Below, piece by piece: positions 31,102-31,926 of a stretch of 64,000 bases of DNA. The DNA comes from Nocardia sputorum (GTDB taxonomy: Bacteria > Actinomycetota > Actinomycetes > Mycobacteriales > Mycobacteriaceae). Positions within the stretch are counted from its first letter, which is position 1; the number at the start of each line of letters is the position of its first letter. The notes under the pieces were generated by a model, which had not been told where the DNA came from, did not search any database, and saw only the letters and a list, made by a program, of their open reading frames with translations. The DNA is taken from NCBI RefSeq assembly GCF_027924405.1, contig NZ_AP026978.1:3534001-3598000 (forward strand). The letters run 5' to 3'. A program made the position numbers and the translations under genes.

Positions 31102-31926
31102 ATGACCATCGATAGTCACCTGCCGCTCGGCTTGCAGTATCCGGCGGCGTCCTTCTCGGAGTTCCTGCGCCGGTACGCGCCGCAGTTGCTGCCGGCCATG
31201 GGTTTCGATGCGGGCGGCGCGGTCGATTTCGCGCCGCACGGTACGACGATCGTGGCGATCAGTTATCGGGGTGGTGTGCTGGTGGCGGGTGATCGCCGGG
31301 GCACGATGGCGCATCTGGTGGCGACGCGGGATATGCAGAAGGTGTTCGTCACCGACACGTATTCGGCGGCCGGTTTCGCGGGCACGGTGGGTATGGCGCT
31401 GGAGATGATCCGGTTGTTCGCGGTGGAGCTGGAGCATTACGAGAAGATCGAGGGGGCGTCGCTGACGTTCGACGGCAAGGCCACGAAGTTGTCGGCGATG
31501 GTGCGCGCGAATCTGCCTGCGGCGTTGCAGGACATGGCGGTGATTCCGGTGCTGGTCGGTTATGACGTGGATGCCGCCGATCCGGAGCGGGCGGGCCGGA
31601 TCGTGTCGTATGACGCGGTGGGTGGGCGGCGGGAGGAGCGTTTCGGTTACACCGCGGTCGGTTCGGGGTCGGTGTTCGCGAAGTCGTCGTTGAAGAAGAC
31701 GTATCACCGGGATATCGATGAGCAGGCGGCGTTGCGGCTGGCGGTGGAGGCGTTGTTCGACGCGGCCGACGACGATACCGCGACGGGTGGGCCGGATCTG
31801 GCGCGGGCGATCTATCCCACCGCGGTGCTGGTGGACGCCGAGGGTGCGGTGGAGGTTGCGGCGGAGCGTCTGGCGGAGATCGCCGGTGTGGTCGCCGACG
31901 CGCGTGCGGCGGCGGAGGGGCGTTGA
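31102..31926 (+). CDS. prcB: 20S proteasome beta subunit (PrcB-type), orphan
   Basis: A 274-residue N-terminal nucleophile hydrolase of the actinobacterial proteasome beta family. A 47-residue propeptide precedes the predicted nucleophile Thr48 in PHGTTIVAI. Counting from that Thr, Asp17 (AGDRR) and Lys33 (MQKV) are in place, as are GSGS and DDDTATGGPD, so the protein should be catalytically active. The usual dop-pup-prcB-prcA-pafA cluster is absent: the neighbours are a secreted beta-glucosidase and a membrane protein, with no prcA downstream. Many substitutions relative to mycobacterial PrcB suggest a second, divergent beta subunit. AAAGG precedes the ATG. Confidence 0.92.
   Translation: MTIDSHLPLGLQYPAASFSEFLRRYAPQLLPAMGFDAGGAVDFAPHGTTIVAISYRGGVLVAGDRRGTMAHLVATRDMQKVFVTDTYSAAGFAGTVGMALEMIRLFAVELEHYEKIEGASLTFDGKATKLSAMVRANLPAALQDMAVIPVLVGYDVDAADPERAGRIVSYDAVGGRREERFGYTAVGSGSVFAKSSLKKTYHRDIDEQAALRLAVEALFDAADDDTATGGPDLARAIYPTAVLVDAEGAVEVAAERLAEIAGVVADARAAAEGR

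What the first reader, a model, noticed from the sequence alone, without database searches (positions are those of the whole stretch)
31102..31926. Orphan, probably active proteasome beta subunit outside a pup-prcB-prcA cluster
PrcB-like protein with intact Thr48/Asp/Lys active-site residues but no prcA, pup, dop or pafA within the window; neighbours are a secreted GH1 enzyme and a Pro-rich membrane protein. Known: Rhodococcus erythropolis has two alpha and two beta subunits. Inference: a second beta subunit that forms mixed or alternative proteasomes with altered specificity, or a self-assembling peptidase of its own.
Basis: partly seen in the sequence, partly recalled or inferred. Interest (0 to 1): 0.75.

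Follow-up and report, generated by a model that had tools for sequence, protein, structure and literature searches.

The report
Inhibitor-resistant-type spare proteasome beta subunit
About one in five Nocardia species carries a spare copy of the cutting subunit of its protein-degrading machine, whose pocket carries the same two changes (positions 45 and 49) that protect an antibiotic-producing relative from its own proteasome poison, yet the gene does not sit in an obvious poison-making cluster.

Summary
Window 31102-31926 (+) is an intact PrcB beta subunit (TIGR03690, 334 bits) with Thr1, Asp17 and Lys33, and a second copy: the same chromosome has a pup-prcB1-prcA locus flanked by dop/pafA about 1.02 Mb away and only one prcA. 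Of 150 Nocardia genomes, 31 carry this orphan prcB2; no prcA lies in any of the 31 fetched loci (13-20 kb). It is under purifying selection (median dN/dS 0.19). It differs from Nocardia PrcB1 at five diagnostic sites; three (A20G, I45F, A49V) are S1 specificity-pocket residues, fixed in 31 of 31. F45+V49 is also the pair of the subunit I identify as SalI, the salinosporamide self-resistance subunit of Salinispora. It arose independently in Nocardia (AU p 0.005 against shared ancestry). Best reading: a PrcA-partnering, inhibitor-tolerant spare beta subunit with altered P1 preference, not in an obvious inhibitor gene cluster. Tolerance is inferred, not shown.

The parts
31102..31926 (+). prcB2: orphan second 20S proteasome beta subunit (274 aa plus stop)
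   Evidence: second copy shown
31089..31095 (+). Shine-Dalgarno-like GGAAAGG, 6 nt before ATG
   Evidence: sequence printed
31102..31242 (+). 47-residue propeptide; stretch from central box to T1 shorter than in PrcB1 (median 17 of 31 PrcB2 against 24 of 30 PrcB1)
31150..31194 (+). Propeptide central box (SFSEFLRRYAPQLLP), the region that lets beta contact two alpha subunits
   Evidence: a loose pattern finds it in 31 of 31 PrcB2 and in all 96 others searched; role from PMC7210456 passages
31243..31245 (+). Codon of the catalytic Thr1 (residue 48)
31291..31293 (+). Codon of Asp17 (catalytic, invariant)
31300..31302 (+). Codon of Gly20 (S1 pocket; Ala or Ser in PrcB1)
   Evidence: 31 of 31 Gly against 51 Ala and 2 Ser of 53
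31306..31308 (+). Codon of Met22 (Gln in 52 of 53 Nocardia PrcB1; Met also in 10 of 37 further canonical sequences)
31339..31341 (+). Codon of Lys33 (catalytic, invariant)
31375..31377 (+). Codon of Phe45 (S1 pocket; Ile in all 90 canonical sequences of the alignment)
31387..31389 (+). Codon of Val49 (S1 pocket; Ala in 50 and Val in 3 of 53 Nocardia PrcB1)
31531..31533 (+). Codon of Asp97 (Gly in all 90 canonical, Asp in 28 of 31 PrcB2); role unknown
29674..30993 (+). Upstream GH1 glycosidase-like gene with signal-peptide-like start (longest frame from 29368), same strand; beside prcB2 in the 15 prcB2 loci of the window's clade and found in none of the other 16
   Evidence: (PF00232)
32372..33331 (+). 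Downstream Pro-rich membrane-like ORF without Pfam match (neighbour, not a demonstrated partner)

Best explanation
prcB2 encodes a second, catalytically competent 20S beta subunit that assembles on the single PrcA ring, alone or mixed with PrcB1, through its conserved propeptide central box, then cleaves itself to free Thr1. Its S1 pocket is rebuilt (G20, F45, V49, with M22) in the manner of SalI. Particles containing it should tolerate proteasome inhibitors that fill S1 (beta-lactone, epoxyketone or boronate type) and show an altered P1 preference. It is most likely a spare, inhibitor-tolerant beta subunit kept because soil actinomycetes, or the bacterium itself, make such inhibitors. SHOWN here: second copy, orphan position, intact catalytic residues, fixed pocket changes, purifying selection, independent recurrence of F45/V49. 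INFERRED: assembly with PrcA, inhibitor tolerance, changed specificity, source of the inhibitor.
For: Two prcB and one prcA; 30 of 150 Nocardia genomes have three proteasome matches, two of them prcB. Of the five sites (of 227) at which PrcB2 and Nocardia PrcB1 are each at least 90% fixed for different residues, three (20, 45, 49) fall among the published S1 residues 20/31/45/49/52 (hypergeometric p 5e-5, 1e-4 if 53 is added; S1 list from PMC5666114 passage). Locus L274 of G370 is 58% identical to its canonical partner L275 (144 of 249), the figure given for SalI against Strop_2244, and the same review says that SalI and the typical subunit differ at positions 45 and 49, that SalI forms a complex with the alpha subunit and that it protects the producer (PMC6449301 passage; 30-fold resistance in PMC6804068 passage). 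L274 carries F45/V49 and sits beside ketosynthase, P450 and dehydratase genes. PSMB5 substitutions at A20, M45 and A49 resist all inhibitors tested, with slight variation for carfilzomib (PMC7932915 passages). The six full-length second copies found outside Nocardia in the order search all carry F45/V49, while their canonical partners have I or M45 with A49. One origin for all F45/V49 rows of a 73-row tree is rejected (AU p 4.4e-6), and so is a clade of Nocardia PrcB2 plus the SalI group (p 0.0049). dN/dS median 0.193, maximum 0.315 over 434 pairs (PrcB1 0.116). Canonical-invariant positions largely kept; alpha-binding box 31 of 31.
Against: No inhibitor biosynthesis cluster adjoins it: only 1 of 31 loci (L191, an NRPS) has an open frame over 1200 aa in the fetched stretch (flanks 3.5-10 kb). 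In the own genome the nearest ketosynthase is about 30 kb away in what looks like a glycolipid synthase. So self-resistance in the strict SalI sense is not supported. A49V alone abolished chymotrypsin-like activity in haploid stem cells (PMC7932915), so activity is not assured. One review sentence says that the SalI complex has 'greater binding affinity' for the drug (PMC6449301), which sits oddly with resistance; the original paper could not be read. F45 with A49 occurs in 7 of 120 listed hits, so F45 alone is no resistance mark. No expression data; no inhibitor was tested.
Confidence: 0.6

Rival explanations
1. Immunoproteasome-like specialisation: PrcB2 is swapped in under some condition to change peptide products or substrate turnover, and inhibitor tolerance is a by-product.
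For: The S1 pocket is what differs; no megasynthase adjoins it in 30 of 31 loci; the 31 copies form one group in the genus tree under purifying selection.
Against: The same F45/V49 pair recurs independently, including in the copy I take as SalI, whose reported role is resistance; no neighbour is shared by all subclades.
Confidence: 0.22
2. Strict self-resistance: these Nocardia make a proteasome inhibitor from a cluster elsewhere in the genome, and prcB2 is its unlinked immunity gene.
For: G000 has 77 condensation-domain and 39 ketosynthase-family matches; N. asteroides GUH-2 is reported to induce proteasome inhibition in cultured cells (title of a reference seen in PMC3751702), and that paper predicts an epoxomicin-like product (passages); the G068 copy is one gene away from an NRPS.
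Against: No linkage in 30 of 31 loci. N. cyriacigeorgica, the species of GUH-2 in that paper, does not look like a carrier: G029, whose prcB is identical in the tree to that of the named N. cyriacigeorgica record L087 (another strain), has one prcB match, with the canonical pocket.
Confidence: 0.12
3. Self-assembling peptidase without PrcA.
For: Orphan gene; Anbu, HslV and BPH are beta-only relatives (recalled; abstracts listed).
Against: The alpha-binding propeptide box is kept in 31 of 31; 75 of 84 canonical-invariant positions are invariant; far below the cut-offs of the HslV models.
Confidence: 0.03
4. Decaying or silent duplicate.
For: Faster protein change than PrcB1 (dN about 2.4-fold, median of 409 same-genome pairs).
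Against: 31 of 31 without internal stops, catalytic and pocket residues fixed, dN/dS 0.19.
Confidence: 0.03

Closest known systems
SalI (Salinispora tropica, salinosporamide self-resistance beta subunit; Kale et al. 2011, not held, cited through PMC6449301 and PMC6804068 passages)
   Same: Second PrcB without its own alpha; F45 and V49 in S1; catalytic residues intact
   Different: SalI lies in its inhibitor's gene cluster; the copy I take as SalI (L274) has T20/S52. Nocardia PrcB2 has G20/A52, is not in an obvious cluster, arose independently and is spread over 31 of 150 genomes of one genus
Rhodococcus erythropolis alpha2/beta2
   Same: Extra beta subunit in an actinobacterium
   Different: Two alpha paralogues as well (PMC7210456 passage). 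For strain NI86/21 a truncated, horizontally acquired proteasome operon is reported and linked to its mixed proteasome (PMC12915292 passages; the passages name pgsA-pafA-pup and dop, not the alpha/beta genes). The beta2 sequence was not examined here
Canonical Nocardia PrcB1
   Same: 70% identical, 161 of 227 mature positions in G000, same catalytic residues and propeptide box
   Different: Mostly A20/Q22/I45/A49/G97, longer stretch before T1; prcA in 30 of 30 PrcB1 loci tested against 0 of 31 PrcB2 loci
PSMB5 inhibitor-resistance substitutions
   Same: Same positions (A20, M45, A49), including A49V (PMC7932915 passages)
   Different: Drug-selected or engineered point changes, not a maintained paralogue

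Membership tests
Bacterial 20S proteasome beta subunit (PrcB) | Score above TIGR03690 cut-off | tested here: met
   334.1 against 191.9 bits
Bacterial 20S proteasome beta subunit (PrcB) | Thr1, Asp17, Lys33 | tested here: met
Bacterial 20S proteasome beta subunit (PrcB) | Propeptide with central box | tested here: met
   31 of 31 by a loose pattern
Bacterial 20S proteasome beta subunit (PrcB) | Assembles with PrcA into an active 20S particle | not testable with these tools
   needs protein work
SalI-type inhibitor-resistant beta subunit | Second prcB in a genome with a canonical prcBA | tested here: met
SalI-type inhibitor-resistant beta subunit | Residues 45 and 49 changed (F45, V49) | tested here: met
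   31 of 31
SalI-type inhibitor-resistant beta subunit | Located in a proteasome-inhibitor biosynthetic cluster | tested here: not met
   no open frame over 1200 aa in the fetched stretch in 30 of 31; nearest ketosynthase in the own genome about 30 kb away, glycolipid-like. A cluster of small enzymes alone would be missed by this
SalI-type inhibitor-resistant beta subunit | Common ancestry with SalI | tested here: not met
   AU p 0.0049 against a Nocardia PrcB2 + SalI-group clade
SalI-type inhibitor-resistant beta subunit | Reduced inhibitor sensitivity | not testable with these tools
   needs enzyme assays
R. erythropolis-type second alpha/beta pair | Accompanying second prcA | tested here: not met
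   three PF00227 matches in the genome, two prcB and one prcA; no prcA at 31 of 31 orphan loci
HslV / archaeal-type beta | Score above HslV or archaeal beta model cut-offs | tested here: not met
   HslV models 35.8 and 29.3 bits against 137 and 157.75; archaeal beta 102 against 224

The most novel reading that the evidence does not exclude
prcB2 is a stand-alone environmental resistance gene: a lineage-wide, cluster-free, convergently evolved inhibitor-proof proteasome beta subunit kept by about a fifth of Nocardia against proteasome inhibitors made by neighbours. That would mean the bacterial proteasome is a regular battlefield target, with its own resistome marked by a two-residue code (F45/V49) that recurs in Actinobacteria.
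Probability: 0.35. Interest if true: 0.75.

Novelty: new variant of a known kind. Interest (0 to 1): 0.6.

Why it matters
It turns an odd orphan gene into a testable prediction: beta subunits with F45/V49 should be inhibitor-tolerant wherever they occur. It suggests that natural proteasome inhibitors exert selection on bacteria well beyond their producers. It gives a sequence mark for finding inhibitor producers and resistant proteasomes, and warns that inhibitors designed against actinobacterial proteasomes may meet pre-existing tolerant subunits. It also offers a bacterial, two-beta parallel to eukaryotic subunit exchange.

Tried and rejected
Rhodococcus-like second operon: rejected, no second prcA. 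Moved prcA or only prcB: rejected. Pseudogene: rejected. Single origin of all F45/V49 subunits: rejected. A partner gene shared by all subclades: none seen (that gene caller missed the beta gene in 3 of 31 loci, G007, G009 and G145, and missed or displaced the GH1 gene in several; one search shows GH1 beside prcB2 in 15 of 31). G026 seemed to have only prcB2, but the contig with its prcA ends just upstream of prcA, so nothing is concluded. The 'second' matches of G289 and G346 were short spurious hits. Gain or loss of the locus: G017 has the upstream flank without a match to GH1-prcB2 beside it, and G023 lacks the block; not resolved. The residue-97 change was not explained. Structure prediction was not run, because a close PDB relative exists (E 2.4e-99). 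Paper searches that could have found such a gene in Nocardia listed none by title or abstract (open-access library only; the listed papers were not all read).

Results and choices that weaken the case: with the eight pocket columns left out, PrcB2 stays one group in the 98-row tree but with support 17, and in the 73-row tree the free search put one PrcB1 (G129) inside it, though the held-together tree scored better. With the pocket columns in, support is 98 (114 of 127 sequences, 6 twins and 7 near-copies left out). The 73 rows were picked by me from the 127 sequences, the loci and the 360 proteins; P0168 was labelled IA there by mistake and was moved to the F45/V49 set. P0016 has F45/T49, not V49. 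One search covers only the 120 listed hits of each of three searches with 8000 scored candidates each. In one search at most six candidates per genome were scored, so divergent second copies may be missed. dN/dS used the 30 genomes with both copies, G026 left out.

Full report
What is there. Window 31102-31926 (+) encodes a 274-residue PrcB that scores 334.1 bits on NCBIfam TIGR03690 (cut-off 191.9) and matches the solved Rhodococcus and Mycobacterium beta subunits over residues 14/15 to 268/272. The window is 3534001-3598000 of a single-contig 7.43 Mb genome; the genus is Nocardia by its named relatives (97% for Nocardia sp. CY41). Pfam PF00227 matches three places in it: this gene, a second prcB (70% identical) and one prcA, the last two adjacent at 2546.4-2547.9 kb, with pup beside them and the two Pup-ligase-family genes, dop and pafA, on either side. 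So this is a spare prcB about 1 Mb from a complete proteasome locus.

How common. Of 150 Nocardia genomes (own included), 30 have three proteasome matches, 117 two and three none; each of the 30 has two prcB by search with this protein. G026 adds one carrier whose canonical prcB is probably lost at a contig end: 31 of 150. The other two-match genomes were not each checked. Named carriers include N. gamkensis, N. araoensis, N. vinacea and N. brasiliensis (L081, L082, L083, L085). In an even draw of 397 genomes of the order, six genomes outside Nocardia have a full-length second prcB (G370, G392, G456, G463, G483, G525); G240, G302 and G320 also had two matches, were fragmented, and were not followed.

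Orphan status. A tblastn search with the own PrcA found no prcA in any of the 31 Nocardia prcB2 loci (13-20 kb; in 8 of 31 the shorter flank is under 9 kb, the least 3.5 kb) nor in six non-Nocardia second-copy loci, while three canonical control loci gave E below 1e-82 and 30 of 30 PrcB1 loci have prcA. Neighbours differ between subclades. In the window's clade a secreted-type GH1 gene lies beside prcB2 in 15 loci; it was found in none of the other 16.

The pocket. I aligned 31 PrcB2, 53 Nocardia PrcB1 and 37 further canonical sequences from named genomes, 8 of them Nocardia. T1, D17, R19, K33 and G47 never vary. Sites at which PrcB2 and Nocardia PrcB1 are each at least 90% fixed for different residues are five of 227: A20G, Q22M, I45F, A49V, G97D. 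A published S1 list is 20/31/45/49/52, residue 45 being named the most important (PMC5666114, passage); three of the five diagnostic sites fall in it (p 5e-5). Of 84 positions invariant in the 90 canonical sequences, 75 are invariant in PrcB2; only 45 is replaced in all 31, and 97 in 28. So the protein was largely kept while its specificity pocket changed.

The match to SalI. The six second copies outside Nocardia all carry F45 and V49, while their canonical partners carry I or M45 with A49. One of them (G370, 5,183,331 bases, locus L274) is beside ketosynthase, P450, dihydroxy-acid-dehydratase and alcohol-dehydrogenase genes and is 58% identical to its partner (144 of 249). A review gives 58% for SalI of Salinispora tropica and says it differs from the typical subunit at positions 45 and 49, forms a complex with the alpha subunit and protects the producer, though it words this as 'greater binding affinity' (PMC6449301 passage); another gives 30-fold resistance (PMC6804068 passage). 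I infer that L274 is salI. Independently, PSMB5 substitutions at A20, M45 and A49 resist all inhibitors tested, with slight variation for carfilzomib (PMC7932915 passages): the three S1 positions switched here.

Independent origin. In a 73-row tree without the eight pocket columns the F45/V49 rows fall in Nocardia, in the SalI group, in a clade with Streptomyces and Actinoalloteichus members, and with G392. Holding all together is rejected (AU p 4.4e-6), and so is Nocardia plus the SalI group (p 0.0049); Nocardia PrcB2 as one clade is not rejected (p 0.743). With pocket columns kept, the 31 form one group at SH-aLRT 98; without them the group remains but unsupported (17). Among 360 homologues listed by three protein searches, 69 have F45/V49, one F45/T49, seven F45/A49, 270 I45/A49 and 13 other pairs; all 360 keep T1/D17/K33. 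Many of these come from Nocardia or from the queries' own kin, so the numbers are no census.

Functional state. PrcB2 evolves about 2.4 times faster in dN than PrcB1 for the same genome pairs (median of 409; higher in 391), but with median dN/dS 0.193 (PrcB1 0.116), far below 1. The propeptide central box, which lets beta contact two alpha subunits (PMC7210456 passages), is found in 31 of 31; the stretch after it is shorter (median 17 against 24). The R. erythropolis core is functional with one alpha and one beta present (same paper, passage), so PrcA+PrcB2 particles are plausible.

Is there an inhibitor cluster? Not an obvious one beside it. Only 1 of 31 loci (G068, L191) has an open frame over 1200 aa in the fetched stretch, an NRPS one gene away. 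In the own genome the nearest ketosynthase is at 3595553, about 30 kb downstream, in an AMP-ligase/KS-AT-DH-KR-ACP/condensation protein with a glycosyltransferase before it and a male-sterility-type reductase after it, a glycolipid-like plan that I do not read as a peptide inhibitor pathway. An unlinked cluster is not excluded (77 condensation-domain matches).

Reading. The anatomy fits a spare PrcA-partnering beta subunit with a SalI-type, inhibitor-tolerant S1 pocket, kept in Nocardia outside any obvious producer cluster. Assembly, tolerance and changed cleavage are inferences from SalI and PSMB5. The main rival is an immunoproteasome-like role. No report of this gene in Nocardia showed up in the listings, which search open-access papers only.

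Noticed in passing
window 20001-32000: GC 0.657-0.674 in these three 4-kb steps against 0.678-0.731 in the other 13: an island-like accessory segment that includes prcB2; its block is missing or broken up in G023 and G017.
   Followed up: partly
window 29674-31926: A secreted-type GH1 gene directly upstream of prcB2 on the same strand is kept in all 15 prcB2 loci of the window's clade, G146 included, and in none of the other 16. Whether a glycosidase and a resistant beta subunit work together (for example on a glycosylated inhibitor) is untested.
   Followed up: partly
window about 57880-64000 (G000:C1:3591880-3605805): Glycosyltransferase, then a 3402-aa AMP-ligase/PKS/condensation protein and a male-sterility-type reductase, running off the window end; frames of like size lie in G139 (L286). 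Looks like a glycolipid synthase cluster.
   Followed up: partly
L271:7972-10714, L273:6142-11188: F45/V49 prcB copies (L271 is identical to a protein of Actinoalloteichus hoggarensis) sit beside a split transketolase pair and a GSDH-domain protein in two genomes: possibly a small-molecule cluster of unknown product.
   Followed up: partly
L272 (G525), and L276 (G456) by gene layout: F45/V49 prcB loci beside an octopine-dehydrogenase-like gene, an AbgT transporter and a two-component system (L272; L276 has the same gene sizes).
   Followed up: partly
proteins P0141, P0157, P0186, P0205, P0211, P0223, P0231: PrcB with F45 but A49, three of them named Kribbella: F45 alone also occurs, perhaps in canonical subunits.
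   Followed up: no
P0016: A Nocardia-like PrcB2 with G20, F45 and T49; A49T is among the PSMB5 substitutions named in PMC7932915.
   Followed up: no
codon 31531-31533: Gly97 to Asp in 28 of 31 PrcB2, invariant Gly in 90 canonical sequences; outside the S1 list, role unknown.
   Followed up: no
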